NCBI RefSeq assembly: GCF_014396385.1
Contig: NZ_CP060716.1
Location: forward strand, 1-64,000
From: Leucobacter denitrificans
Lineage (GTDB): Bacteria; Actinomycetota; Actinomycetes; Actinomycetales; Microbacteriaceae
Direction of reading: 5' to 3'
DNA length: 64,000 nt
Positions within the stretch are counted from its first letter, which is position 1, and each line of letters opens with the position of its first letter. The position numbers were made by a program, and so were the translations under genes. Shown one piece after another: positions 5,264 to 17,815 of this stretch. Below the pieces are notes generated by a model that worked only from the letters and a program-made list of their open reading frames with translations, was not told where the DNA came from and ran no database searches.

Positions 5264-6145
5264 GTGCCGACACTCTGGGCGGTGGTCGGCGCGACTGGCA
5301 CCGGCAAGTCTGCCTACTCGCTCGATCTTGCTGAAGAGCGAACTCGCGCAACGGGTATTCCCGCCGTTATCGTGAACGCCGATGCAATGCAGCTGTATCG
5401 AGGCATGGATATCGGCACGGCAAAGCTGCCAGTAGAGGAGCGTAGAGGCATCGAGCACCGGCTGTTCAATGTTCTCAACCCCACCGAGGAAGCGACGGTT
5501 GCGTGGTATCAGCCCGAGGCGAGAGCTGCACTCGTCGAGGCATTCTCTCGCGGCGCAGATGCGATTCTTGTCGGTGGGTCGGGGCTTTACGTCTCGAGCG
5601 TAATCTTCGACTTCCAGTTTCCGCCGCGCGACGAGAAGCTGCGTGCCGAGCTTGAAACTGAGTACGAAGCAGCGGGTGTCTCCCCGCTGCTTGAGCGGCT
5701 TCGAACACTAGATGCGGCAGTCGCAGAGGCGGTTGACGCACAGAACCCAAGACGGGTGATTCGGGCGCTTGAAGTAGCACTGCTCGGTGGTGATGCTCAG
5801 GTCACGCTCCCGACCGAACCGAAGGTGTGGCACGAAGACACGCACATCGTTGGCATAGCGTGTGGACGAGAGGTGCTCGTGCAGCGTCTCGAGGAGCGTG
5901 TTGAACACATGTGGGCCGATGGAATGGTCGACGAGGTGCGTTCGCTTATTCCACACGGTATTCGCGAGGGCAAGACCGCCAGCCAAGCTATCGGGTACGC
6001 ACAGGCCCTCGCTCAGATAGACGGGCGGCTGAGTGAACGAGAGGCGATTGAAGAGACGCAGCGCCTCACGCGCAGGTACGCACGCCGTCAGGTGAGCTGG
6101 TTTAAGCGATACCCGGGCATCGAATGGGTTACGCCTGCGCGCTAG
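5264..6145 (+). CDS. miaA: tRNA dimethylallyltransferase MiaA
   Basis: A 293-residue enzyme that transfers a dimethylallyl group to A37 of UNN-reading tRNAs, supplying the substrate for MiaB. The P-loop GATGTGKS is at residues 9-16; NADAMQLYRGMDIGTAK and the later TASQAIGYAQ block are family signatures. The start is GTG, one base after the miaB stop, so the two genes are coupled. Its last 17 bases overlap the end of the convergent gene at 6129-6878. It is cytoplasmic. Confidence 0.96.
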   Translation: MPTLWAVVGATGTGKSAYSLDLAEERTRATGIPAVIVNADAMQLYRGMDIGTAKLPVEERRGIEHRLFNVLNPTEEATVAWYQPEARAALVEAFSRGADAILVGGSGLYVSSVIFDFQFPPRDEKLRAELETEYEAAGVSPLLERLRTLDAAVAEAVDAQNPRRVIRALEVALLGGDAQVTLPTEPKVWHEDTHIVGIACGREVLVQRLEERVEHMWADGMVDEVRSLIPHGIREGKTASQAIGYAQALAQIDGRLSEREAIEETQRLTRRYARRQVSWFKRYPGIEWVTPAR

Positions 6146-6878
6146 CCTCACGCTCACGAATCGTGGTGACGTCGTCGGCAGTTCCAGCCCATGCTGCAGC
6201 GTAATCGAGCGCACCCGTCGCGAGTCGCACCGGCACCTCGACCGGGAGCAGCGACTTCATGACGGCGAAGGCGTCTTGAAGCTCCTCAGTACCGAACTGG
6301 CTGCCAAACGGAAACTCGATGCGGCCCGGGGTGTTGCCTGAGGCGAGCGTGCGGAAGCGTTTGACGCGCGACGAAGGATCGCTGATCGCAGCGCAATCTG
6401 TGATGCCAATGGTGATGTTCGCCGTATTCACACCGGCACTGAGCATCGCGCGCCCAGGCGCCCCAAATAGGGTGTGCTGTGCGCGTGCCCTGAGCGCTGG
6501 GGCGGAATCGAGTGCCCACACCCCACTCACAGCAGTGAGTGGAATTACCGTGTCACCGGCGACCGTAATGCTCGAGCTCGTGATCTCGAGCACTGCGCCG
6601 TCTGGCCCGACGAAGCGCTCGGCTTTGCGCACGATCCGCCATACCCGAATGAGCGTAAGAACTGCCAACACCGAGAGCACAATTGCGGCGTACCTGAGTG
6701 ATGGCCGCGCGATGCCGTGTGGCCCCCACAGCAGCCAGGGAAGGAACGAGAGCGCGAGCAGCACAATTGCAACGATCGCGACGTTTCGACGGGCGCGTTT
6801 GGCCTCTGCTCGACGCTCTGGCGTCACCCGAAAGGAGCGCCCGGCGGCCGCTGGAGATGGAGAGGTGGGGTTTGTCAC
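6129..6878 (-). CDS. membrane protein of the FHA/FtsK locus, unknown function
   Basis: A 249-residue protein, family not recognised. An N-terminal basic region (residues 1-32) precedes two membrane helices at about 33-53 and 62-82, followed by a soluble domain of some 160 residues on the same side as the N-terminus. GTG start; it overlaps the stop of the upstream gene (6875-7486) by 4 bases, so it is the last gene of a coupled five-gene operon. Its 3' end overlaps the miaA 3' end by 17 bases. The soluble part has a short beta-rich stretch (FVGPDGAVLEITSSSITV) resembling a PH-like strand pattern, but this is not a firm assignment. Confidence 0.75.
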   Translation of the reverse strand: MTNPTSPSPAAAGRSFRVTPERRAEAKRARRNVAIVAIVLLALSFLPWLLWGPHGIARPSLRYAAIVLSVLAVLTLIRVWRIVRKAERFVGPDGAVLEITSSSITVAGDTVIPLTAVSGVWALDSAPALRARAQHTLFGAPGRAMLSAGVNTANITIGITDCAAISDPSSRVKRFRTLASGNTPGRIEFPFGSQFGTEELQDAFAVMKSLLPVEVPVRLATGALDYAAAWAGTADDVTTIREREASAQA

Positions 6879-7486
6879 TTCACGCCCACTCGATCACCAA
6901 ACACGGTCTGGTAGGTCTCAAAGTCTGCGCCCTGGAACGTGACGAGCTCCCACTGTGGGTCTTCGCGAAGATCGAACGCGTAGGTGCCCACGTAGGCCAC
7001 ACGATCTTGGTGAGAGGACCAGCCTTCGACAATGAGGTTGCCTTTCTCGGCTCCCTCATTCATCGACCCGATGACCGCGGCATCGCGCGTGCGAACGAGG
7101 TTCTGAAATTCCGCCCCCTGCTGTGATGTGCCGGGAAAGAATGCGCGGTACCCGCGCCGCAGCCGCGACCCGGTCTGCTTCCTGAAGAATCGGGGAGAGA
7201 ACTGCCAGCCGAGGAACATGGGAAGCACAGCAATTACAGGAAGCGCGAACAGGCCAATGAGCACCCCGAACCGAGACCCCACTCGTTGGTTCAGTGTTGC
7301 GGCTGTGTCTTGGTGCTCCGCAAAGTCGGCGCTCACTTCGCGCGAGTTGATGAGCAGCAGCAGCCACGCCAGAAGAATGAGTGCACCGATCCCAAAACCG
7401 ATTGCGAGCACGGCGGGTGACCTGCGCACCTCAATCTCGGGGTGCCGACGCAGACGTGTCGCGATGTCTGGGTTCTTCGAACTCAC
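6875..7486 (-). CDS. two-TM membrane protein of the FHA/FtsK locus
   Basis: A 203-residue protein, family not recognised. Two membrane helices (about residues 24-48 and 74-96) flank a short loop; the remaining 105 residues are soluble. GTG start at 7486 was chosen because GAGGAGG lies 7 bases upstream within the end of the previous gene and GTG overlaps that gene's TGA; the longer frame to 7549 has no ribosome site. The C-terminal domain and that of the next gene could interact with the FtsK-like protein at the membrane, which is inference from the operon only. Confidence 0.75.
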   Translation of the reverse strand: MSSKNPDIATRLRRHPEIEVRRSPAVLAIGFGIGALILLAWLLLLINSREVSADFAEHQDTAATLNQRVGSRFGVLIGLFALPVIAVLPMFLGWQFSPRFFRKQTGSRLRRGYRAFFPGTSQQGAEFQNLVRTRDAAVIGSMNEGAEKGNLIVEGWSSHQDRVAYVGTYAFDLREDPQWELVTFQGADFETYQTVFGDRVGVK

Positions 7487-8220
7487 TGCATTGCCTCCTC
7501 GGCAGTCTGGTGGGTGATGTGTACGTCGACTGGAACACTGCCGAGCCAAATACGGTCGCCGTGACGAAGGGATATCTGTCTGCCGCTTCGAAGAGCGAGC
7601 ACCGAGCCATCGCGCTCAACCGACGACCCATTCGCGGAGCCCGCATCTGAAATCGACGCAGCCTGCCCGTGCACCTCGATGATGGCATGTGCGCGAGAGA
7701 CCGACTTCGACTCGTCAGGAACCTCGATTGCCTGGGCGCCCGAGTTACGCGCAGTTGCCTCGGGACGGCGGCCGAGCACCGCGGTGCCGTCGATCTTCAC
7801 ACGTGAACCATCGTGCAACTGCAGCTCGATGACTCGGGTATCGGCGCTCGCGAGCTTGGGTCGCGGCGGTGGTGCAACGAGCGGCGCGGCTGCGCCGGGT
7901 CGTGGATCTGAGACCCGTTGCGACGCGTGGGTGCTCGGTAAGTCGGGAAGTGCGGGTACCTCGGGGAGCAGGAACTGCTCGATACCTCCGCGCGGCGGGG
8001 TCGGTGCGTTCGCCGCCGCGGGTGTCGCGGGGTGCGGCGCGGCATGGGAACCCGCGTGCAGCGTCGATTGCAGAGTGGGCCTCGAGGTCGTCGAGCGGGG
8101 AGCTACGACGATCTGACCGCAGTTCATGCAGTACATCGAATTCGGTCGAGCCTGCGTGCCGCAGTAGGCGCACTCGGCGCGGGTTGAAACGAACGCGGTA
8201 TTGATGGTTGAGTCGCTCAT
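7483..8220 (-). CDS. zinc-ribbon and FHA domain protein
   Basis: A 245-residue cytoplasmic protein. Residues 17-34 form a CxxC-x10-CxxC zinc ribbon (Cys17, 20, 31, 34). A disordered Pro/Ala-rich linker covers about 40-135. The C-terminal FHA domain (about 140-240) shows the usual phosphothreonine-binding landmarks: GRRPEA, SRAHAIIE and GSANGS. FHA domains dock phosphothreonine partners. No Ser/Thr kinase or phosphatase gene lies in this window. The ATG overlaps the stop of the FtsK-like gene by one base (TAATG), so its synthesis is probably tied to that protein. Confidence 0.88.
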   Translation of the reverse strand: MSDSTINTAFVSTRAECAYCGTQARPNSMYCMNCGQIVVAPRSTTSRPTLQSTLHAGSHAAPHPATPAAANAPTPPRGGIEQFLLPEVPALPDLPSTHASQRVSDPRPGAAAPLVAPPPRPKLASADTRVIELQLHDGSRVKIDGTAVLGRRPEATARNSGAQAIEVPDESKSVSRAHAIIEVHGQAASISDAGSANGSSVERDGSVLALRSGRQISLRHGDRIWLGSVPVDVHITHQTAEEAMQ

Positions 8221-11200
8221 TACTGCCTCACATCCGGTGTGCGGATCGGAACCCACTGCCCATCAAGGTGGGCAACGCCTGCGCCCGCCGACCGAGTACC
8301 GATCATGAACTTCGGAATCTGTGTGCCAAACAGAGTCATTCCGATCATGGCGTGCATGGGCGTGAGTACGATGCCCCTTCGGTAACGCTTCGCCTGAGCA
8401 AGCGCCCCGCCAAACAGAGACGACGACGCTTCCGATTCGACCGCGACAGCGATCGACACGCGGGTTGCCACACCCGAGATTCCGAACTCGATCGGTTGCT
8501 GCTTCATCATCTCAGCGTCGTCGACGAACAGCGTGAGCGGTCCGTTCGCAGACGCGGCCTCCAGCTCTTCAACGATCGAGGTGAATGATGCGGCGTCGAG
8601 CGAGAGGTCGCTGAGCACCGTGATGCCCTCGGCCTCGGCGAGCTCGGTGAGCACAGATGCTCTCGGCGCGACGACGAGAGCCGTGCGGCCCGCGGCATGC
8701 AGTTGATGCAAGAGCGTCGCGAGAACAGTGGATCGGCCACTACTGCGATTGCCCGCTGCAACAAACCCAGTGAGCTCATCCCAGCCCACGGTGAGGCGGG
8801 AAAGCTCATCGCCACCGACTCCATACACGAGTCCGTCGGCCGGGAGCCCGCGGTGCGTGGGGAGCGTGAACGCCTGTTGCAGACCGATGTAGGCGGGCAG
8901 CGGATCCACACGGAACGCGGTCGGCAAGCGATCGAGCTGCGGGAACTGCTCGTAGTAGTCGCGTGAGGTGTCGATATATTGGCGAAGCATTGCGGTTTGG
9001 GCTTCGCCACCGGTATCGCGTGAAAGCATCGCGAGCTGCGTCTCTTTGCCGTCTGAGCCCGAGAGCATGCGCCCAGGAACGAGGTTCGCGGGGAGCTCTC
9101 GAATCATGACGCCTGCGGCACGGTAGTCGTTTGGATCGCGCAGTGGGAGGAGGTACTGCGTATCGATCGCGCTCGCAATCTTGTCGCCAGTGAAGGTGCG
9201 ATCCGCTGTCATTATCAGCCTGATGCCAACCGCAGGACCCTCACGAAGCACCCGCATGATCTGCTCACGGAACACGACCAACTGGTCGGCTCCGAACGTT
9301 CCGGTGAGGCGCTCCCAGCCGTCGATCGCAACGATCGCGTAGGCGAGAGCCTCTTCCGGAGACGAGCGCTTCCGCTGTTCCGCAATCGAACCGACACCCG
9401 CCGCTGAAAGGGCCGCTTGTCGCCTCGCAAGATCGGCGAGCAAGCGTTCCATGAGGCGGGGGAGACGCTCGTGATCCACCTGGGAAATCACGGCACCACA
9501 GTGCGGCGCACCAGCGAGCGGAAGCAATGCACCATTGCCGTAGTCGGCAACATAAATATGAAGGTTTGATGGGGAGTACCGCATGACAGCCTGTGCAAGG
9601 ATAGTGCGAAGCGCCGAAGTGCGACCAGATCGCGCTCCACCAATGAAGAGCAGGTGCCCCTCTTCCGCGGGGTTCCAGAGCAGTGGGCGTTGGGTCTGCC
9701 TCGCCGGGAGGTCTTGCAGACCGAGAATAATCTCGCCCTCGCCGATCGGATCTGCAGCGAAGCGATCGATGGGAAGTACCTCGGGGAGGGGCTGCAGCCA
9801 GGGTGATGGGTTGCGCTCGATGCCGCCCAAACGTGCCGCATTGATTGCGAGTCCGACGAGTGCGCGGAGGTCGGTGTCGTCGTGGTCGACAGGCCCGTGG
9901 TTTTCCTGCTTTGGCGGGAACTGAGGCGCAGAACCAATACGATCCCAGCTCAACTCGGCGACCGGGAGCGTGGTGACTGTGGACTGCTGAGCGCCACGCT
10001 TCAAGCCAGCGACGCGCGCGGTCTGGAACGGTACCGGGTGCCCGCCGACAGCAGACCGCACAAAGCCGCGGCCGGGGAGCGACGGCGGGATGAGCGCGGC
10101 GTCTGGCGTTCCCAAAATATCGGTCGAGTCAGACCGGTCGGTGACGCGAAGCGACACACGAAGGTTGATGTTTGACTGCATTTCGGGGGTGACGACGCCA
10201 GAGGGGCGCTGTGTGGCAAGTACTAGATGCACGCCGAGCGAGCGGCCCACGCGGGCGATGCGCACGATGCCGTTGATGAACTCCGGAAGTTCGGCCTTCA
10301 GCTCGGCGAACTCGTCGATGACCATGACGAGCCGTGCGAGCCCATTCTGTGACGCCGCTTCGGGATCCCGTTCCCAGGCCGCATCGAGATCCTTTGCACC
10401 GAGTTCACCGAGCACGCGCTCACGTCGTTTGAGTTCGGCATCGAGACTCGCCAGCGCGCGCTCAGTCTCACGAGCGTCGAGGTTGGTGACCATGCCGACA
10501 GTGTGCGGCAGTCGCTCGCAGTCTGCGAACGCTGACCCGCCCTTGTAGTCGACGAGCACAAAGTTCATTGCATCGGGACGGTTCGCGAGGGCGAGGGAAA
10601 CGACGAGCGTTTGGAGGAACTCTGACTTGCCGGAACCCGTCGTGCCTGCTACAAGTGCGTGAGGCCCATCTTTTGCGAGGTCAATTGCGAACTCGCTCTC
10701 TGCGGTCGCACCAACTGTGATGAACGAGCGCCTCGGCGATGCGTTCCAGCGTTGAAGCAACGATTCGCTCGAATCCAGGTCGATGCCTGTGACGTCAACG
10801 TAACGCACCGACGTGGGGAGCGCGCCCTCATCGCCAGCGCCAGATACGTGGTCGATTGAGCAGAGCGAGCGCGCAATCGCGTCGGCGTCTGCGAGCGAGA
10901 GACCATCGATAAGCACACGGGGAATAAAGGCATCGTCTGACTCAAGTCGCGCGAGCGAGTGGTCAGCATCATCGATGATCACGACCGATCGACACTCCTC
11001 GGGAAGTCGGGAGCGGTCAGAATCGAGCGCAATGACGTGCACGCCCACCGAGGTTCCGTGCGCGAGCACGTCAATCATTCCAGGCAAACGCCTGAGATCA
11101 CGCGCACCGTCGATTAGCACGACGATATGCTCAGCAATCGATGCGCCCTGCCCCACCCGCATTCGGTTCTCAACGACCGAAGCAAGTTCTCTGAGTCGGT

Positions 11201-12563
11201 CGCGGCGAGTGTCATCGGTGTTCCCGATCATTGCCGCAGGGCCAGAGTCGGGCGTGACGTGGGGGAGCCAGGAGGTCCAGCCCCACTCCTGCTCGCTCTC
11301 TTCGCCGCACAGCACGACAACGCGCAGGTCTCGCGGCGACCGAAGCGTCGTGAGCGACGCGATCATCGATCGCGCAACCGAGCGTACTGACTCGGTGCTG
11401 CCGCCGATACCGACGGGGCCGGCGGCAAGGTTCACGCTCACTGGCACAGGCGAGACACCGACCGCGACCGCATCGTCGCTGCGCGCGCCACCCTGGAATA
11501 CCGCGTCAAGTGGCAGCTCGCCGACACCGATTCGACTCACGAGCGCGTCGCTGTCGCCCTGGCGTCGCTCCCATAGTCGTGAGAGCGGCCTCAGTGCGAT
11601 GTCTTTGATTCTCAGTGGATCGGGATGCGCGTACCAAGAATCTACGCGCTGTGTGCGCACGAGTTCGGCGATGCGAGACTTCGCCTGTGAGACCTCCTCG
11701 ATCCACTGTGCCTCGGTGCGCTCGCCCTTCTTTCGCGCAAGCTTCTTGTTCACGAGATACGAGCCGATCACCATGATTGGGGACGCGGCGGCCATGAGGA
11801 GCATCACCGGGCGGTTGAAGACCGTCGCCATGGTGACGCCGAGAATGACTGGGATCACCGCAGACAGCCACGGGAGTGGGGACTTGTCTGAGTCTTCGGG
11901 CTTCTCGCCCGGCATCGTGACGGTTGGTGCAGACTCGCTCGGACGAATGCGCGACGGGCGGTTAAACGCTCGCATGCCCTGAGGGTCGGGTGCAATATCG
12001 GCGTCAGGAATCGGCTCCATGCCGATACGAATAAGCGATGAGCCAACTTGAATGACGTCGATCGGCGCGATCTGGGTTGCCTCGTGTACCTCGGTTCCGT
12101 TCACCCAGAGCTTCGACCCTGCCGAGGGCTCGATTGCCGCGAGCAAGGGGAGTGGACGACCGTCTTCTGGCGTCACTCCGAGCGCGGTCGCACCCACGAT
12201 CACACTTGCGTGTGCCTCCGCGAGGTGTGGATCGGCAATTCGCAGATGAGCGCCAGCACCCGAACCAATGATGAAACGATCTTCACCCGTCAGAGTGATC
12301 GACTGACCAGCGAACGGGCCACCGACGACCTCGAGCCGCGGAGTACCCTCTGCGGGAGGCGCCTGGCGCTGCGGTGGGATCACTGATCCACTGAGCAGCG
12401 CGGTGTCTGCAATTGGCACGTGAGGCGCTTGTTCCTGCGGCACTCCGCCGACGATGACGGGGTCAACCCCGAGTGCCGATGAAAGCTGTGCCACGGTCGT
12501 GGCATCGTCGACGGGAACCAGTACGGTTCGTTCGCGGTCTGAGTGCGCGACGGTCAATCGCAT
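8220..12563 (-). CDS. FHA and triple FtsK/SpoIIIE-domain ATPase, EssC/EccC-like
   Basis: A 1447-residue membrane ATPase with the layout of type VII secretion motor proteins. Residues 1-60 form a small ubiquitin-like/wing region, about 76-180 an FHA-like domain (IIGSGAGAHLRI), and 232-271 two close membrane helices. Three FtsK/SpoIIIE ATPase domains follow. Domain 1 has an intact Walker A (GTTGSGKS near residue 638) and Walker B (MVIDEF near 748). Domains 2 (GGARSGRTS near 974) and 3 (GNRSSGRST near 1274) have Arg in place of the Walker A Lys. The start is ATG 12563 with AAAGGCGGA upstream; the longer frame to 12839 overlaps the preceding gene. In EssC/EccC the first ATPase powers export of WXG100 proteins; none is visible here, so the substrate is unknown. 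Confidence 0.9.
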   Translation of the reverse strand: MRLTVAHSDRERTVLVPVDDATTVAQLSSALGVDPVIVGGVPQEQAPHVPIADTALLSGSVIPPQRQAPPAEGTPRLEVVGGPFAGQSITLTGEDRFIIGSGAGAHLRIADPHLAEAHASVIVGATALGVTPEDGRPLPLLAAIEPSAGSKLWVNGTEVHEATQIAPIDVIQVGSSLIRIGMEPIPDADIAPDPQGMRAFNRPSRIRPSESAPTVTMPGEKPEDSDKSPLPWLSAVIPVILGVTMATVFNRPVMLLMAAASPIMVIGSYLVNKKLARKKGERTEAQWIEEVSQAKSRIAELVRTQRVDSWYAHPDPLRIKDIALRPLSRLWERRQGDSDALVSRIGVGELPLDAVFQGGARSDDAVAVGVSPVPVSVNLAAGPVGIGGSTESVRSVARSMIASLTTLRSPRDLRVVVLCGEESEQEWGWTSWLPHVTPDSGPAAMIGNTDDTRRDRLRELASVVENRMRVGQGASIAEHIVVLIDGARDLRRLPGMIDVLAHGTSVGVHVIALDSDRSRLPEECRSVVIIDDADHSLARLESDDAFIPRVLIDGLSLADADAIARSLCSIDHVSGAGDEGALPTSVRYVDVTGIDLDSSESLLQRWNASPRRSFITVGATAESEFAIDLAKDGPHALVAGTTGSGKSEFLQTLVVSLALANRPDAMNFVLVDYKGGSAFADCERLPHTVGMVTNLDARETERALASLDAELKRRERVLGELGAKDLDAAWERDPEAASQNGLARLVMVIDEFAELKAELPEFINGIVRIARVGRSLGVHLVLATQRPSGVVTPEMQSNINLRVSLRVTDRSDSTDILGTPDAALIPPSLPGRGFVRSAVGGHPVPFQTARVAGLKRGAQQSTVTTLPVAELSWDRIGSAPQFPPKQENHGPVDHDDTDLRALVGLAINAARLGGIERNPSPWLQPLPEVLPIDRFAADPIGEGEIILGLQDLPARQTQRPLLWNPAEEGHLLFIGGARSGRTSALRTILAQAVMRYSPSNLHIYVADYGNGALLPLAGAPHCGAVISQVDHERLPRLMERLLADLARRQAALSAAGVGSIAEQRKRSSPEEALAYAIVAIDGWERLTGTFGADQLVVFREQIMRVLREGPAVGIRLIMTADRTFTGDKIASAIDTQYLLPLRDPNDYRAAGVMIRELPANLVPGRMLSGSDGKETQLAMLSRDTGGEAQTAMLRQYIDTSRDYYEQFPQLDRLPTAFRVDPLPAYIGLQQAFTLPTHRGLPADGLVYGVGGDELSRLTVGWDELTGFVAAGNRSSGRSTVLATLLHQLHAAGRTALVVAPRASVLTELAEAEGITVLSDLSLDAASFTSIVEELEAASANGPLTLFVDDAEMMKQQPIEFGISGVATRVSIAVAVESEASSSLFGGALAQAKRYRRGIVLTPMHAMIGMTLFGTQIPKFMIGTRSAGAGVAHLDGQWVPIRTPDVRQ

Positions 12564-12594
12564 TGGCGCTCCGCCTTTCGTTCGCTCGGCATAA

Positions 12595-13644
12595 TCATCG
12601 GGCTCCGAGTTTGTCCATGAGTTCGGTGAACCCCGTGGTCGCACCGCCCGGAGTCTCTTCAGCTTCAGGCGGCGGCGTCGGTAGCGTGAGTTCAAGCTTG
12701 GCACGTTTTGTGCCGACACCCGGTGCAAGCGGTGGTGGATCGTCAGAGAGCGTAACCGAAGCGACCGTCTGTCGGCCGTCTTCTGCGACGATCTGAATAG
12801 CGAACTGGTCAGTTGACGGTGCACCCGGGTCGGGAACATAGTGGATCTCGCCGCCCGGAGTGCAGGTCACACCGCCGTACAGCGCCTCACCGCACTCAGA
12901 AATAATGAGGCCTGAGCCTGACGTTGGGGTAGCGACGAGATGATCGACTTCAAGGCTGAGTTCGCCCGGTTCAGAAGTAATGTGCACGCCGTGAAAAGGG
13001 GCTGCCTCGCTTCGCGAAACATTGAGCATCACCTTAAACGTTTTCGAAACGTTCTCGATGTCATCGCGCACTCGCAGATCCACCTCGACAAGCCCGTGCC
13101 CATCGCGGGCCGCCGTGTACACCAGGTGAGAACCGGTTACGCGCGCGCTACCGAGATCTTCTGGAGCGACGTTGCCGACCTCGATCGATGCTTCACCCGC
13201 ACTGCACAGACCACACGTCAACCCCAGGGGCGACAGCGGAATCAGTGAGACAGCGCCAGCCGGGACTGGGAAACCGAGTGTCGTGTCAGGGGCCTCAGGT
13301 AATGCGGGCTCTGCGAGCCGGATGACGTAGTCGAGGGTGACCTCTCGGCCACCGTTCAAAAGTCGCACCGGAAAACGGACTGGCTCAATCTCTGCGTCGT
13401 AAGCGCCGCCTGTGACTGTGAAGCTCTCGGAGGAGCACGCGGTCACAAAATCGCTCGCACCTGAGATCTGCGAACAGTCTGCGTAGTGCCACCCAGCAGC
13501 CGGACGAACCTCAAGCTCACCGTTCAGCGGCACCTCAACCACGCTGGGCCCCGAAGCAAAATCTGCTGAGGTTGACACCGCTCCGGTGGTGGTTGCTACA
13601 GCAAGGCTCGCGGCCAGTAATGCGGTGCTGAGCAGTGAGGGCAT
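12595..13644 (-). CDS. exported Ig-like/beta-sandwich protein, first gene of the FHA/FtsK operon
   Basis: A 349-residue protein with a Sec signal peptide (about residues 1-27, hydrophobic core LLSTALLAASLAVATTTG). The rest is beta-rich with several Cys that could form disulfides (DCS, ACS, TCGLC, ECG, VTC). Repeated Ig-like sandwich domains are likely, for example around HLVYTAARDGHGLVEVDLRV. There is no C-terminal membrane anchor or sorting signal. It is the first gene of the minus-strand operon and ends 31 bases before the FtsK-like start. It may be a surface component or a substrate of the motor; the sequence does not decide this. A GGAAG ribosome site lies upstream of the ATG. Confidence 0.75.
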   Translation of the reverse strand: MPSLLSTALLAASLAVATTTGAVSTSADFASGPSVVEVPLNGELEVRPAAGWHYADCSQISGASDFVTACSSESFTVTGGAYDAEIEPVRFPVRLLNGGREVTLDYVIRLAEPALPEAPDTTLGFPVPAGAVSLIPLSPLGLTCGLCSAGEASIEVGNVAPEDLGSARVTGSHLVYTAARDGHGLVEVDLRVRDDIENVSKTFKVMLNVSRSEAAPFHGVHITSEPGELSLEVDHLVATPTSGSGLIISECGEALYGGVTCTPGGEIHYVPDPGAPSTDQFAIQIVAEDGRQTVASVTLSDDPPPLAPGVGTKRAKLELTLPTPPPEAEETPGGATTGFTELMDKLGAR

Positions 13645-13744
13645 GCAGAGGAACTTCCGGTAGATCAGCGTGGGTACCCCATAATGGTAGAGCGGATTTG
13701 GTTCGCGCAGGAGTCGACGTGCGCGAATTGACGGAAGGAGCGCG
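13645..13744. promoter_or_regulatory. divergent promoter region of the envelope locus
   Basis: One hundred bases separate the minus-strand operon from the plus-strand pair. It holds the palindrome GGGTACCC (13672-13679) next to an AT-rich CATAATGG stretch that could supply -10 elements for either direction. A shared regulator is possible but no strong operator is seen. Confidence 0.4.
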
Positions 13745-14260
13745 GTGCGCGAGCAGATTGAAATGGGTCGTGAGCCCGGTCAACCGACTCTGCTCGCAGG
13801 CGGACCAGCGCCAGCACTCGGCACTGGTCGAGACGTTCTTCCTTCACTCGAGGAGGTCGCCGAAAAGCCAAAGCCGATGTGGCGACACCCGGCATTCATT
13901 GTGTCAGCGATACTCACCATTCTCGCTCTACTCGCTGCTGCCGCGTTTGCCGCGTATGCACTCTTCGGGCCAGGCAACGGTGAGGTCAAGAGTGCCGCGA
14001 TCGAAGTCGTTGATGGCAATGCGCACGTGACCTGGGAGTCGTCTGACGCAGTCGAGTTCTTTGTCGTCACGAATGGCCAGCCAGTCGACCTCACTCAGCT
14101 CGTTGCGGGCGAGAACGAAGCTTGGATTCCCGCGGCCCTCAACCTCTTCACCCAGTCGAGCTGCTTTGTGGTGCGGCCTGAATCAGCGAGCGATGAAGAA
14201 GTGTCACTCGACGGCAGCGCGTTGCAAAGCCAGCGGGCCTCAAGCGTGTGTGTGGGCTGA
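13745..14260 (+). CDS. membrane-anchored protein with extracytoplasmic beta domain
   Basis: A 171-residue protein. An acidic/Pro-rich N-terminus (about 1-46) precedes one membrane helix at about 50-75. An outside domain of 95 residues follows, with the strand pattern of a fibronectin-III-like fold (AHVTWESSDAVEFFVVTNG) and two Cys that could pair. The GTG start is supported by GGAAGGAG 4 bases upstream. It is divergent from the FHA/FtsK operon and followed at 16 bases by a lipoprotein gene, so it likely belongs to the same envelope system. Function unknown. Confidence 0.75.
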   Translation: MREQIEMGREPGQPTLLAGGPAPALGTGRDVLPSLEEVAEKPKPMWRHPAFIVSAILTILALLAAAAFAAYALFGPGNGEVKSAAIEVVDGNAHVTWESSDAVEFFVVTNGQPVDLTQLVAGENEAWIPAALNLFTQSSCFVVRPESASDEEVSLDGSALQSQRASSVCVG

Positions 14261-14276
14261 TTTCTTGCGCGGTGAC

Positions 14277-15041
14277 ATGAGTGTGCAATTGCGTCGGGGC
14301 ATAGCGCTCGCCGCAGTTGTGATTGCCGGATCACTGCTCGTGTCGTGCTCGAAGGAAGAGCCGGAACCGGTTCCCAAACCAGAGGGCATTGATCTCGAAG
14401 CGGCGGCCGAAATTGGTGCGAGTGGAAATGGGCTCTGGATTCTCGATGGGGTATCGGCCGCGGGGCGCGTGATCGACGCAATGCGTGCGGCTGACGGCGG
14501 CACGATGACGGCAAGTGTTCACGAGATGATCCCGGTCGAACAGGGAGATCCGCTTCCCGGCCGCAACATCAGCGTCGTGAGTTCGACCGACGGTACAAAC
14601 TTGCAAGCATCTTTTGTCGTTGGTGATCAGACCGGTGAGCTCGTTATCATCGGCAACGACGTGTGGGTAAAGGGTAACGGGGCGTTTACCGAGCGGATCG
14701 GCGCGGGCGACGGCACCGACGAGTTCGTGTGCATGGCTCGCGGATCCACCTCGATCGCCGAGTTCGAGACGCTCGCAAAACCCGCCGAGTTTCTGCGATC
14801 CACACTCTCTGGCCTCGAGATCGGCACGCTATCTCCTACCGAGGCAGAACCCGACCTACAGTCCCTAGTGCTCGGCGTGAGCGCGGCGCCGATTGGATAC
14901 GTTACAGTCGCGGCGCAGGGCCCGCCGCTCCCTCACCAGATCTCGGCGTTTGACGTTACCGGGAGCGTCGAGGCGCAGTTCACCTGGGGGGACGTGTCCG
15001 AGATTCAGGCGCCAGACGGCGATGCGAGCGGCTGCGGGTAG
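14277..15041 (+). CDS. lipoprotein, possibly of the LppX/LprG-like fold
   Basis: A 254-residue lipoprotein. The signal sequence ends in the lipobox LVSC (Cys near residue 23). The mature part has alternating strands such as SVVSSTDGTNLQASFVVGD and LVIIGNDVWVKGNG that recall actinobacterial LppX/LprAFG lipid-carrier lipoproteins; this is a pattern match, not a proven homology. ATG 14277 was chosen because it opens the signal peptide; longer frames would put about 70 residues before it. The ribosome site is weak, so translation may depend on the upstream gene. Confidence 0.78.
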   Translation: MSVQLRRGIALAAVVIAGSLLVSCSKEEPEPVPKPEGIDLEAAAEIGASGNGLWILDGVSAAGRVIDAMRAADGGTMTASVHEMIPVEQGDPLPGRNISVVSSTDGTNLQASFVVGDQTGELVIIGNDVWVKGNGAFTERIGAGDGTDEFVCMARGSTSIAEFETLAKPAEFLRSTLSGLEIGTLSPTEAEPDLQSLVLGVSAAPIGYVTVAAQGPPLPHQISAFDVTGSVEAQFTWGDVSEIQAPDGDASGCG

Positions 15042-15059: not shown

Positions 15060-15392
15060 ATGACCGATGCGGTGAGACGGGAGCGGTGTGCCGAGGTAGC
15101 CGCAGCAGTAATGGTGTTGATCCCCTCGATTCTCGAGGGACGCGGAGACCCAGACAAACTTGCTAATGCGCTGCCTGCGGTTCAGCGAATCCAGACGGTT
15201 ATCGATGCAGGGTCAGCGGGCATTGACGATGAACGCTATCTCGCCTGGCTGCGGGTAGCGCCCGCGAACATTCGTGCGCTCGGTGACGCTGTCGAAGCGG
15301 GAGACGCAGATGCAGCCTTCGCTGCCTTTCGAGATCCAAGCGGTGGATTGCACTTGCTCTCTGCTGGCTGCGAAGGCTGCGTCGGCTGGTAA
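15060..15392 (+). CDS. small cytoplasmic protein with C-terminal CxxC, unknown
   Basis: A 110-residue, mainly helical protein with no signal peptide; family not recognised. The C-terminus carries a Cys pair (GCEGCVGW) that could bind metal or heme or be redox-active. It starts as a probable leaderless message 18 bases after the lipoprotein gene. It may belong to the envelope locus or be independent of it. Confidence 0.6.
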   Translation: MTDAVRRERCAEVAAAVMVLIPSILEGRGDPDKLANALPAVQRIQTVIDAGSAGIDDERYLAWLRVAPANIRALGDAVEAGDADAAFAAFRDPSGGLHLLSAGCEGCVGW

Positions 15393-15410: not shown

Positions 15411-16484
15411 CTACCGAGTTCGCCGCGACTTGCGCGAACTCTCGATTGCGTTCAGTGCCCCTGCGATTGCCCCGAAGAGCACCGCGCCGATCGGCCAGAC
15501 GATCCACGAGCGATCCCACGCATCGCCGATAAAGCTCCATGCGAGGAAGATTACGGTGAGCAGCGGCCAATAGATTGAGGCGACCGTGCCAACGAGGCTT
15601 CGTTCGTCTTCATCAGGTGCGCCGGTTGCGGGATCGGGTCGGCCGGACCGTGTGAGTGCCTCTGCGGTGTCTGCTGCCCAATTGCTCGGCAGGAAGATGA
15701 GGAGGCCTGCCGCGACCATGATCAGAGTGCAGGCCGCTCCGACTCCGCTCCAAGAGTCGGATGCCGCGTCCGTGAACGTAGGAAGCAATGCAATCGTCAG
15801 CACGGGTGCGGCCGAGAGGATCCACAACACGATCGCGACCTGCAATCGCACCGTGCGCCTGCCGGAATGCTCGGCCTCGAGCGACTTCGCCCAACGTTCG
15901 ACGCTGAGCGAACGCGTGAACTTGCTACTCGTAATGCGATCGAACTGCGCAAGTTGCTGGCTGCGGCGGACGAATATCAAGACGCCCGAGGTGACGAGGA
16001 TGAGGAGCGCGAGGAGTCCGATGAGTGCACCCGCCCGCTCGTCGAATCCGAACATGCCCGAGGCGCCCAGGGGAGCGAGTGAGACGAGCAGTGCTGGCGA
16101 GATGACGCAAAGCGCGACGCCGAGAGCGAGTCTCGGTTCGGTTTTACGGCGTGCATTCGCGTACCCCTCGGCCTCTTCCATGGTGATTGGTGCGTAGGTA
16201 AGTGGTGCGGGTGCTGGAGCAGAGGGTTGTGATGGTGCTGGTAGCTGGTTCGCGGCGGGTGGATGGATTTCCTGACTGATGCCGAGCGCGGGTGCGACCT
16301 CATCGAGGTTGCCGAACTCAGTTATCACGCGCCCAACGGCCTCGTTTTCTGAAGCGCCCTGCGAGAGGTACCCCGCATACGCGTCCTCCATCATGGTCTG
16401 CAGCTCAGCTTTTGCCTCGAGCAGACGGGGAGTCTGCGGGTACGTGCTGAACATGGTTTCTAAGTAAGCGGTGATGACGTTCAT
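15411..16484 (-). CDS. HAAS domain membrane protein, partner of the PadR regulator
   Basis: A 357-residue protein. Residues 1-70 match the HAAS/permease-prefix domain (short helical, with MEDAYAGYLSQG and EAVGRVITEFG). A Pro/Ala-rich linker (about 73-105) follows. About six membrane helices then make up the rest. Such proteins nearly always sit directly after a PadR-type regulator; their role is thought to be in envelope sensing or regulation but is not settled. The ATG overlaps the PadR stop by 4 bases, so both are co-translated. Confidence 0.82.
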   Translation of the reverse strand: MNVITAYLETMFSTYPQTPRLLEAKAELQTMMEDAYAGYLSQGASENEAVGRVITEFGNLDEVAPALGISQEIHPPAANQLPAPSQPSAPAPAPLTYAPITMEEAEGYANARRKTEPRLALGVALCVISPALLVSLAPLGASGMFGFDERAGALIGLLALLILVTSGVLIFVRRSQQLAQFDRITSSKFTRSLSVERWAKSLEAEHSGRRTVRLQVAIVLWILSAAPVLTIALLPTFTDAASDSWSGVGAACTLIMVAAGLLIFLPSNWAADTAEALTRSGRPDPATGAPDEDERSLVGTVASIYWPLLTVIFLAWSFIGDAWDRSWIVWPIGAVLFGAIAGALNAIESSRKSRRTR

Positions 16485-16813
16485 GATGGTGCTCCTTCAA
16501 TGAATCGATCGACGACGGTCTTCGTGAGTTTCCACTCAGCAATCTTTTGTGCCAGGTGTGCGTGGCCCTGTTCGGTGATTTGGTAATACATTCGAGGTTT
16601 TCCCGAGTCTGAAATGGCTGAATATGAAGTGACGAGCTCGGCCGACTCAAGACGCTTGACAGCCGAGTACAGCGTGGTTTGCTTGATCGTGTAGTCTTCG
16701 CCAGCGACCGAGCTGATTTTCTGCGCGAGTTCGTACGCATACGACGGCTGGGTGCGGAGTAGTGAGAGCAGCATGATGTCGATATACCCGCGAATTGCAT
16801 CTGGACTAATCAT
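16481..16813 (-). CDS. PadR family transcriptional regulator
   Basis: A 110-residue winged helix-turn-helix repressor of the PadR family: [18 protein letters not shown] opens the domain, and [18 protein letters not shown] is the recognition helix and wing. ATG 16813 was preferred over an upstream GTG because GAGAGGAG lies 6 bases before it. It is the first gene of a two-gene operon with the HAAS membrane protein and probably represses itself through the strong inverted repeat at 16858-16882. The inducer is not evident. Confidence 0.9.
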
Positions 16814-16857
16814 TGGGACTCCTCTCAATTCTTCTGGGCTTTATCTCGTTACGACGA

Positions 16858-16882
16858 ACGTACTACGTGTGGCGTAGTACGT
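16858..16882. promoter_or_regulatory. PadR operator
   Basis: ACGTACTAC, 7-base spacer, GTAGTACGT: perfect 9-base arms, 45 bases before the PadR start. Such a strong dyad next to a PadR gene is very likely its own binding site. Confidence 0.85.
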
Positions 16883-16942
16883 CAAGCAATTGTTTCGATT
16901 TTTGCCGTAGCGTATATTTCATCGTTTGAGAGGATCAGCACT

Positions 16943-17815
16943 ATGCCAGTACTCAAGTTCACCAAAGGTCACGGCACCGGTAACGACTTTGTGCTGTACT
17001 CAGACCCCGAAGGCGTCGCGCCACTCACCCCACATCTCGTGCGCACACTGTGCGACCGCAGGTTTGGAATCGGGGCAGATGGCGTGATTCGTGCGGTGCG
17101 ATCCCGGGCAATTCCCGACGGAGCCGATTCTCTTGCCGAAGAGCCAGACGCAGAGTGGTTCATGGACTATTGGAACGCCGATGGCACTACAGCGGAAATG
17201 TGTGGCAATGGTATTCGCGTGTATGTGCACTACCTCATCTCACAGGGGCTCCTCACGCTCGATGACAGCGAGTCCGTAGCCATCGGTACTCGAGCCGGAG
17301 TAAAAGATGTTGCGAGGGCAGGAGACGGGTACACGGTAGACCTTGGGCATTGGCAACTCGGCATCGATCGGCTCGTAACTGCTCAGGGGCTTCGCGTGCC
17401 GAGGCCGGGCGTCACCATCGATCTCGGTAACCTTCACGTCGTGACCGCGCTCGCGGGTGAGTCGAAGCTTGACTCCCTCGACCTCACGCAGCTTCCCGCG
17501 CTCGACCCAGCACCAGAAGGAGGGGCCAACGTCGAATTCGTCGTTCCAGAAGAGCCGCTCATCGAAGACGGTGCGGCACGCATCAACATGCGCGTGTACG
17601 AGCGGGGAGTGGGCGAGACCCTATCCTGCGGCACCGGCGCGACTGCGGCGGCACTTGCTTTCCGCCACTGGGGTGGATCGGGAATGCCGAACACCTGGAA
17701 TGTGACGGTACCGGGCGGTCAACTCACTGTTCGCATGTTCGACAGCGCAGACGGTGAGCGGGTCTCACTCGCGGGCCCGGCGACGCTGGTCTATAGCGGC
17801 GAGTTCGCTATTTAG
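16943..17815 (+). CDS. dapF: diaminopimelate epimerase
   Basis: A 290-residue enzyme interconverting LL- and meso-diaminopimelate for lysine and peptidoglycan synthesis. The two catalytic Cys are present: Cys87 in MCGNGIRV and Cys229 in [11 protein letters not shown]; the [11 protein letters not shown]-terminal signature is intact. GAGAGGA precedes the ATG by 8 bases. Its last 8 bases overlap the stop of the convergent methyltransferase gene. Presence of dapF shows that the strain makes meso- or LL-DAP at least for lysine. Confidence 0.97.

What the first reader, a model, noticed from the sequence alone, without database searches (positions are those of the whole stretch)
6129..15041. Compact envelope locus with an EssC/EccC-like FHA/FtsK motor but no WXG100 gene
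A five-gene coupled operon encodes an exported Ig-like protein, a 1447-residue FHA-TM-FtsK x3 ATPase, a zinc-ribbon/FHA protein and two membrane proteins, with a divergent anchored protein and lipoprotein. It has the motor of type VII secretion without visible WXG100 substrates, EccB/D/E, mycosin or EsaA/EssA/EssB. It sits between miaA and dapF, which are much closer in relatives. It could be a minimal secretion machine with an unknown substrate, possibly the exported first-gene product, or an envelope-building system.
Basis: partly seen in the sequence, partly recalled or inferred. Interest (0 to 1): 0.85.

Follow-up and report, generated by a model that had tools for sequence, protein, structure and literature searches.

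The report
Type VII secretion motor, cargo elsewhere
This is the engine and envelope half of what looks like a type VII protein secretion system; its small WXG100 cargo genes are not missing but lie elsewhere in the same chromosome, and its set of helper proteins, shared by scattered relatives, looks like an undescribed version of that system.

Summary
The minus-strand operon (13644-6129) encodes an exported Ig-like protein, a 1447-aa FHA/FtsK motor of the EssC/EccC family, a zinc-ribbon/FHA protein and two membrane proteins; d1 (anchored), d2 (lipoprotein) and d3 diverge from it. The genome also carries a matching WXG100 module (esx1, esx2, esx3, a toxin-like gene) from C1:2,250,961, 161 kb away if the contig is circular. 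In 150 family genomes, motor orthologues, the Ig protein and this esx1 type occur in the same 17; esx1 lies within 8.8 kb of the motor in 15 of the other 16. A MAG, L065, has all 12 genes in one cluster, cargo directly after d3, where the window locus ends. Nine of nine further genomes with d1 have esx1. This genome has no EccB, EssB or mycosin match and no EccD over its cut-off. A second, phylogenetically distinct motor with its own WXG100 lies at C1:2.15 Mb. Best reading: a type VII secretion system, sister to T7SSd-like actinobacterial systems, with its own envelope proteins and possibly a fused ubiquitin-like domain: probably a new subtype, with the cargo separated here.

The parts
12595..13644 (-). 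g1: exported protein with bacterial Ig-like (Big_9) domain, 349 aa; 16 invariant columns in the 15 aligned homologues, six of them Cys
   Evidence: found in 16 of 16 orthologous loci; same 17 of 150 genomes as the motor
8220..12563 (-). g2: EssC/EccC-like FHA-TM-FtsK motor, 1447 aa. First ATPase domain has canonical Walker A GTTGSGKSE (from residue 640) and Walker B; the second (GGARSGRTS) and third (AGNRSSGRS) have Arg for Lys
12366..12563 (-). g2 residues 1-66: possible ubiquitin-like (beta-grasp) domain fused to the motor (tentative)
12006..12356 (-). g2 residues 70-186: FHA fold; the GR and Ser of the phosphothreonine site are missing
7483..8220 (-). g3: CxxC...CxxC zinc ribbon plus FHA domain with intact GR...SxxH, 245 aa
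   Evidence: homologues over 180 bits in 10 of 16 loci
6875..7486 (-). g4: membrane protein, 203 aa, two hydrophobic segments
   Evidence: homologues in 5 of 16 loci and in L065
6129..6878 (-). g5: membrane protein, 249 aa, two hydrophobic segments
   Evidence: homologues in 7 of 16 loci and in L065; in L048 one 481-aa ORF matches both g4 and g5
13745..14260 (+). d1: single-TM anchored protein, 171 aa, no Pfam match
   Evidence: found in 16 of 16 loci
14277..15041 (+). d2: lipoprotein, 254 aa, invariant lipobox Cys24
   Evidence: found in 14 of 16 loci
15060..15392 (+). d3: 110-aa protein; the locus ends here, where L065 continues into esx1
   Evidence: found in 7 of 16 loci and in L065, 55% identical

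Best explanation
The locus is the machine half of a type VII secretion system. Its cargo half (WXG100 proteins esx1, esx2, esx3 and a large toxin-like substrate) sits from C1:2,250,961 onward in the same chromosome. Proposed working: WXG100 hairpin proteins carrying a C-terminal YxxxE signal dock on the FtsK-type motor, whose first ATPase domain is intact, and are driven through the cytoplasmic membrane alone or as partners of the large substrate. g1 (Ig-like, outside), d1 (one membrane helix) and d2 (lipoprotein) form the envelope part that EccB/D/E or EssA/EssB/EsaA form in other types. g3, which keeps a phosphothreonine-type FHA site, brings in a phosphorylation signal, and a ubiquitin-like domain fused to the motor replaces free EsaB. 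SHOWN: gene content, co-occurrence, shared cluster in relatives, the split here, motif states. INFERRED: secretion itself, direction, assembly and the role of each helper.
For: Own genome has esx1/2/3 and a toxin-like ORF from C1:2250961 onward. Motor orthologues (48% identity or more), g1 (E up to 1e-4) and esx1 (45% or more) fall in the same 17 of 150 family genomes; the other 14 genomes with an esx1 hit reach 35% at most. esx1-motor gap is 0.8-8.8 kb in 15 of 16 others and 24.1 kb in one. L065 holds all 12 genes together, matched by 8 window and 4 L013 genes: motor 66%, esx1 93%, others 36-70%. Check on new genomes: 9 of 9 with a full d1 have esx1 at 65% or more; 0 of 3 without. The split recurs: in G426 esx1 is about 52 kb beyond the motor (coordinates). 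The 19 window-type motors in the tree form one clade at SH-aLRT 100. W-x-G and YxxxE in esx1. The large cargo ORFs of relatives end in TNT (3 of 5 scanned) or in Ntox15, ADP-ribosyltransferase and glutamine-deamidase domains.
Against: No secretion was shown. The cargo is not beside the motor here, so use of this cargo by this motor rests on relatives. The toxin-like ORF at L013 changes reading frame inside its linker, so the main substrate may be dead. Circularity of the contig, hence the 161 kb, is assumed (2.24 Mb within the contig otherwise). EssC and EccC model cut-offs are not reached. WXG100-type N termini of the large cargo ORFs are sub-cut-off matches, seen in 4 of the 6 scanned. The ubiquitin-like domain rests on weak fold matches.
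Confidence: 0.88

Rival explanations
1. One reading: a minimal secretion or envelope-building machine without WXG100 partners, perhaps exporting g1.
For: No WXG100 gene lies in the interval; g1 has a signal-like N terminus and is the first gene; no EccB or EssB and no EccD over cut-off in the genome.
Against: Every genome examined that has the full system also has this esx1 (17 of 17; 9 of 9), usually nearby. g1 is present in all 17 with the motor, as expected of a component.
Confidence: 0.05
2. The system is a relic in this genome: the cargo was separated and the main substrate is broken, so the motor has little left to do.
For: The toxin-like frame ends at L013:16346 and similar coding continues from 15875 in another frame; cargo is far from the motor; both same-genus genomes lack motor orthologue, g1 and esx1.
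Against: All 8 machine genes and esx1-3 are open frames; esx1 is 93% identical to that of L065; D1 Walker motifs are intact. A frame change in a repeat-rich linker can be a sequencing error.
Confidence: 0.15
3. The motor works with the WXG100 of the second type VII locus (C1:2.15 Mb).
For: That locus has a WXG100 gene beside its own FHA/FtsK motor.
Against: The two motors are 31% identical and lie in different, fully supported clades; the two WXG100 proteins give no BLASTP alignment, though a profile search links them.
Confidence: 0.03
4. The ATPase is a DNA translocase.
For: It shares the FtsK_SpoIIIE fold.
Against: It scores 559 bits against EssC and 71 against FtsK PRK10263 (cut-off 1566); a better FtsK_SpoIIIE match sits at C1:2402663 (225 bits against 121); several of its partners look exported or membrane-bound.
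Confidence: 0.01

Closest known systems
T7SSd (Actinomycetota: Olsenella, Bifidobacterium), Garrett, Higginson and Palmer 2024, PMC11217815 (abstract, parts 2-4 of 7 and the Discussion read)
   Same: FHA-bearing EssC-like motor, WXG100 protein, an exported Ig-like protein, a single-TM protein, toxin candidates nearby. Motors of two Bifidobacteriaceae (L093, L094) fall in the sister group.
   Different: By the paper T7SSd has a membrane Ser/Thr kinase (TsdD), a 1654-aa Ig protein (O. uli) with a C-terminal TM helix, and no ubiquitin-like protein. Here: no kinase motif in the 64 kb window, a 349-aa Ig protein without C-terminal hydrophobic helix, zinc-ribbon/FHA g3, lipoprotein d2, d3, g4, g5, and a possible ubiquitin-like domain fused to the motor.
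T7SSb (Bacillota EssC/EssB/EssA/EsaA/EsaB)
   Same: FHA-TM-FtsK motor closest to the EssC model; the motor FHA lacks phosphothreonine residues, as the paper reports for EssC; toxin cargo with small helical partner proteins.
   Different: No EssB/YukC in any of 17 genomes; EssC model cut-off not reached; the other components differ.
T7SSa / ESX (EccB-EccC-EccD-EccE-mycosin)
   Same: FtsK-type motor and WXG100 proteins; TNT-type toxin domains and one weak PPE match (0.008) in cargo of relatives.
   Different: No EccB or mycosin match and no EccD over cut-off in this genome; 2 of 17 genomes carry EccB, EccD and an EccC elsewhere as well.
The second motor locus of the same genome (L014, C1:2.15 Mb)
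   Same: FHA-TM-FtsK motor beside a WXG100 gene.
   Different: 31% identical motor in another clade; no g1/d1/d2/g3 found in the 19 kb fetched; canonical FHA motif.

Membership tests
Type VII secretion (general) | EccC/EssC-type FtsK motor | tested here: met
   EssC 559 bits, EccCa 394, EccCb 285 (all below the curated equivalog cut-offs); PDB hits EccC, YukB, EccC5
Type VII secretion (general) | WXG100 partner | tested here: met
   esx1 at C1:2250961, PF06013 78.5 bits, same 17 of 150 genomes as the motor; far from the motor in this genome
Type VII secretion (general) | motor-dependent export of the WXG100 protein | not testable with these tools
   needs experiment
T7SSa | EccB | tested here: not met
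   none in G000; 2 of 17 genomes, G017 and G056
T7SSa | EccD | tested here: not met
   two weak matches in G000 (16.5 and 16 bits, cut-off 94.95); over cut-off only in G017 and G056, 2 of 17
T7SSa | mycosin | tested here: not met
   no match at E 1e-5 in G000. Elsewhere 0 of 17 reach the cut-off (278.75), but 13 genomes have subtilases at 227-263 bits, one of them (G017) beside EccB/EccD, so the cut-off is strict and for the relatives it is open
T7SSa | EccE | not tested
T7SSb | EssB/YukC | tested here: not met
   0 of 17 genomes at E 0.01; the control rings in B. subtilis
T7SSb | EssA, EsaA | not tested
T7SSd | membrane Ser/Thr kinase TsdD at the locus | tested here: inconclusive
   a strict motif (HRDxKPxN type) finds none in the 64 kb window and one in 3 of the 19 window-type stretches scanned (16 loci, window, L065, L068); it also found none beside the Bifidobacteriaceae motors L093 and L094, so the motif can miss a kinase
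T7SSd | large Ig-like TsdI with signal peptide and C-terminal TM | tested here: not met
   g1 is 349 aa, Ig-like, with no C-terminal hydrophobic helix
T7SSd | motor inside the TsdC clade | tested here: inconclusive
   Bifidobacteriaceae motors are in the sister group, not inside; Olsenella was not in the tree
FtsK DNA translocase | match to the FtsK equivalog | tested here: not met
   71 bits against a cut-off of 1566; a better FtsK_SpoIIIE match elsewhere

The most novel reading that the evidence does not exclude
This is an undescribed subtype of type VII secretion in Actinomycetota (Microbacteriaceae and one further family of the order). It uses a motor with a fused ubiquitin-like domain and its own envelope set: Ig-like g1, single-TM d1, lipoprotein d2, zinc-ribbon/FHA g3 and optional d3/g4/g5. 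Its cargo module of three WXG100 proteins plus a polymorphic toxin can be detached from the machine and still be served by it.
Probability: 0.6. Interest if true: 0.62.

Novelty: new variant of a known kind. Interest (0 to 1): 0.5.

Why it matters
Type VII machines differ in most parts besides motor and WXG100 protein (PMC11217815), and how the rest of the channel is built is open. A small, well-bounded set whose core (motor, Ig protein, esx1) is found together in 17 genomes of 14 genera gives a tractable case for asking what a type VII channel needs, and whether a fused ubiquitin-like domain and an Ig/lipoprotein pair can replace EccB/D/E or EssA/EssB/EsaA. It is also a warning for locus-based surveys: the paper that defined T7SSc-j found no clear EsxA gene for T7SSi, and here the missing WXG100 gene was simply elsewhere in the genome.

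Tried and rejected
Rejected: a system without WXG100 partners; a DNA translocase; membership in T7SSa or T7SSb; a LppX/LprG-type lipoprotein for d2, my own lead from memory (no Pfam or PDB support; one of 11 members matched DUF7537); use of the L014 WXG100. padR and the adjacent membrane gene (15411-16828) are not part of the system as far as seen: they are in 0 of 16 relative loci.

Led nowhere or limited: Pfam and PDB profile searches for the motor N terminus gave only weak ubiquitin-fold hits. The fold search rows for residues 1-69 are weak one by one, and no EsaB/YukD entry was among the 50 rows shown by either search. The g1 structure could not be predicted: every attempt met a full queue. 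The tree is a quick LG+G4 search, rooted by me on two EccC rows, with long branches flagged; 12 of 69 collected rows (duplicates and near-copies) were dropped beforehand, and L069, a window-type row, was left without its label, so the printed 'changes 2' is a labelling slip. Gene calls in relatives are mechanical ORFs, often with over-long starts; in L068 this hid esx1 until. Flanks were at most about 10 kb, so absences there are not genome-wide. The kinase test was a motif only. EccE, EssA and EsaA were not searched. Papers: searches. Opened: PMC11217815 (abstract, parts 2-4 of 7, Discussion, one term search; supplements not available), and passages only of PMC6106888 (says Pontimonas salivibrio, Microbacteriaceae, has no type VII systems) and PMC5552033 (lists T7SS proteins among predicted regions of Rathayibacter toxicus, Microbacteriaceae, without detail in the passage). 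The others were seen as listings. That this subtype is not in print rests on those searches of an open-licence library only.
Full report
What is there. The genes are as described. On the minus strand g1 (13644-12595), g2 (12563-8220), g3 (8220-7483), g4 (7486-6875) and g5 (6878-6129) follow each other, with a 31-base gap between g1 and g2, g2 and g3 meeting at base 8220, and 4-base overlaps at the last two junctions. g2 matches the EssC model over residues 200-1299 with 559 bits, EccCa with 394 and EccCb with 285, each under the curated cut-off. Its first ATPase domain has canonical Walker motifs; the second and third have Arg in place of the Walker A Lys, as in most of the 33 motors aligned. 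The block sits between miaA and dapF, 10.8 kb apart here. In the two same-genus genomes the gap is 48 and 130 bp, and at most 132 bp in 15 of 18 other genomes.

The missing WXG100 genes are in the same genome. A WXG100 family search of the genome gives four places: C1:2150385, beside a second FHA/FtsK motor of 1567 aa, and three at C1:2250970-2252083. The latter are consecutive genes, here esx1 (97 aa, 78.5 bits), esx2 (173 aa, 30.7 bits) and esx3 (103 aa, 22.8 bits, under the 27.3 cut-off), followed by a toxin-like ORF with a sub-cut-off WXG100_2 match.

Which motor do they belong to? I searched 150 genomes of the family with three queries. Motor orthologues at 48% identity or more over most of the protein: 17 genomes (in G135 as two pieces); the next EssC-like match is 41%, while short FtsK matches reach 54% over some 200 residues. 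g1 at E up to 1e-4: 17 genomes. esx1 at E up to 1e-8: 31 genomes, of which 17 at 45% identity or more and 14 at 35% or less. The three sets of 17 are identical (chance of such an agreement for two random sets: about 1e-22, ignoring relatedness). In the 16 other genomes esx1 is 0.8-8.8 kb from the motor in 15 and 24.1 kb in one; in the window's genome it is 161 kb away across the contig's ends if these join, else 2.24 Mb. As a check on other genomes, a d1 profile over 396 genomes of the order found 14: one of them a fragment with a stop (G078), four from the first set, and nine new ones, four of these in another family. All nine have esx1 at 65% or more; G078 and two d1-negative genomes chosen for comparison have none. 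In G426 esx1 lies about 52 kb beyond the motor, and in G366 on another contig, so separation of cargo and machine has probably happened more than once.

The undivided form. In L065, a MAG with the closest motor (66%), the order is tox, esx3, esx2, esx1, d3, d2, d1 on one strand and g1, g2, g3, g4, g5 on the other, all adjacent. All 12 are matched by genes of the window (8) or L013 (4): g1 45, g2 66, g3 36, g4 43, g5 49, d1 50, d2 42, d3 55, esx1 93, esx2 53, esx3 70, first 420 residues of tox 55%. The window locus ends directly after d3, where the cargo begins in L065. The WXG100 gene of the second locus gives no BLASTP alignment with esx1, and that motor lies in another clade.

Conservation of the parts. 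In the 16 orthologous loci, g1 and d1 are found in 16, d2 in 14, g3 in 10 at more than 180 bits (weaker FHA matches in 4 more), g5 and d3 in 7, g4 in 5, and tox in 8; miaA, dapF, padR and the neighbouring membrane gene in none (the fetched flanks are limited, so counts are minimum values). Outside this group, motors at 30-41% identity often have a WXG100 gene next to them but no g1, d1 or d2 was found there. Three members of the second family of the order that I fetched (L118-L120) have g1, g2, g3, d1, d2 and d3, and L120 also has esx1, esx2 and tox adjacent.

Known components. EccB is in 2 of 17 genomes and EccD over cut-off in the same 2, next to a separate EccC; EssB in 0 of 17. In the window's genome there is no EccB or EssB and only two 16-bit EccD matches (cut-off 94.95). 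No mycosin match at E 1e-5 in the window's genome, but 13 of the other 16 have subtilases under the mycosin cut-off at 227-263 bits; the one in G017 lies beside EccB and EccD, so the cut-off is strict and a mycosin-like protease is not excluded for these genomes.

Cargo. Of five large ORFs after esx3 scanned in relatives, three end in TNT domains (one of them with a glutamine-deamidase domain as well), one has Ntox15, ADP-ribosyltransferase and glutamine-deamidase domains, and one shows no toxin family; WXG100_2 matches in four of the six ORFs (L013 included) are all under that family's cut-off, and one PPE match is weak. This suggests toxin delivery between bacteria, an inference. In the window's genome the ORF 14160-16346 of L013 changes frame in its Pro/Gly/Ala-rich linker, and similar coding continues in ORF 15875-17074, which has no Pfam match.

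Phylogeny. In a tree of 57 motors, the window type is one clade of 19 rows with SH-aLRT 100, sister (with one long-branch row) to a broad actinobacterial group that contains Bifidobacteriaceae motors; EccC proteins and the second motor of this genome fall elsewhere. Garrett et al. 2024 (PMC11217815; parts read are named in Tried and rejected) define T7SSc-j beside T7SSa and b. Their only new actinobacterial type, T7SSd, has WXG100, FHA motor, kinase, a single-TM protein and a large Ig protein with a C-terminal helix, and no ubiquitin-like protein. The window type shares the motor layout, a single-TM protein and an exported Ig-like protein in general terms but differs in the details tested and has further parts. 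The names Microbacter-, Agromyces and Leifsonia do not occur in that paper's main text, and no paper in the library holds type VII secretion, WXG100 and Microbacteriaceae together; two hold type VII secretion and Microbacteriaceae, and their passages do not describe this system.

Verdict. The claim that makes it striking, a type VII motor without WXG100 partners, does not. What remains is a type VII system of a probably undescribed subtype, split into machine and cargo in this genome.

Noticed in passing
L014:9377-15048 (G000:C1:2150376-2156047): A second, only distantly related type VII-like locus: WXG100 gene, 1567-aa FHA/FtsK motor with canonical FHA motif, and a YiaA/B-type membrane protein; upstream a 621-aa alpha/beta hydrolase-like protein and two lipoprotein-like genes.
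   Followed up: partly
L013:14160-17074: The toxin-like cargo gene appears as two overlapping frames, changing in a Pro/Gly/Ala-rich linker; described only.
   Followed up: partly
L013:17068-18915: Small ORFs behind the cargo gene look like immunity or orphan toxin-tail genes; one has a weak TNT match (E 0.061).
   Followed up: partly
window:15411-16828: A PadR regulator gene overlapping a gene for a membrane protein, lying with the locus between miaA and dapF but absent from all 16 relative loci.
   Followed up: partly
L053, L058, L059: In three relatives an ORF with a Ser/Thr kinase motif lies within about 10 kb of the motor, a possible source of the phosphorylation read by g3.
   Followed up: no
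L060 and L069 (Arenivirga flava, G135): The motor gene is split over two frames in this record; mutation or sequence error not told apart.
   Followed up: no
L121 (G078:C12): A genome with remnants only in the stretch fetched: a d1 fragment with a stop, pieces matching d2, d3 and tox, no motor or esx1 there; no esx1 in the genome at E 1e-8.
   Followed up: no
G111, G040, G023, G079 and nine other genomes: Mycosin-like subtilases under the family cut-off in 13 of the 16 other genomes with the system, but not in the window's genome.
   Followed up: no
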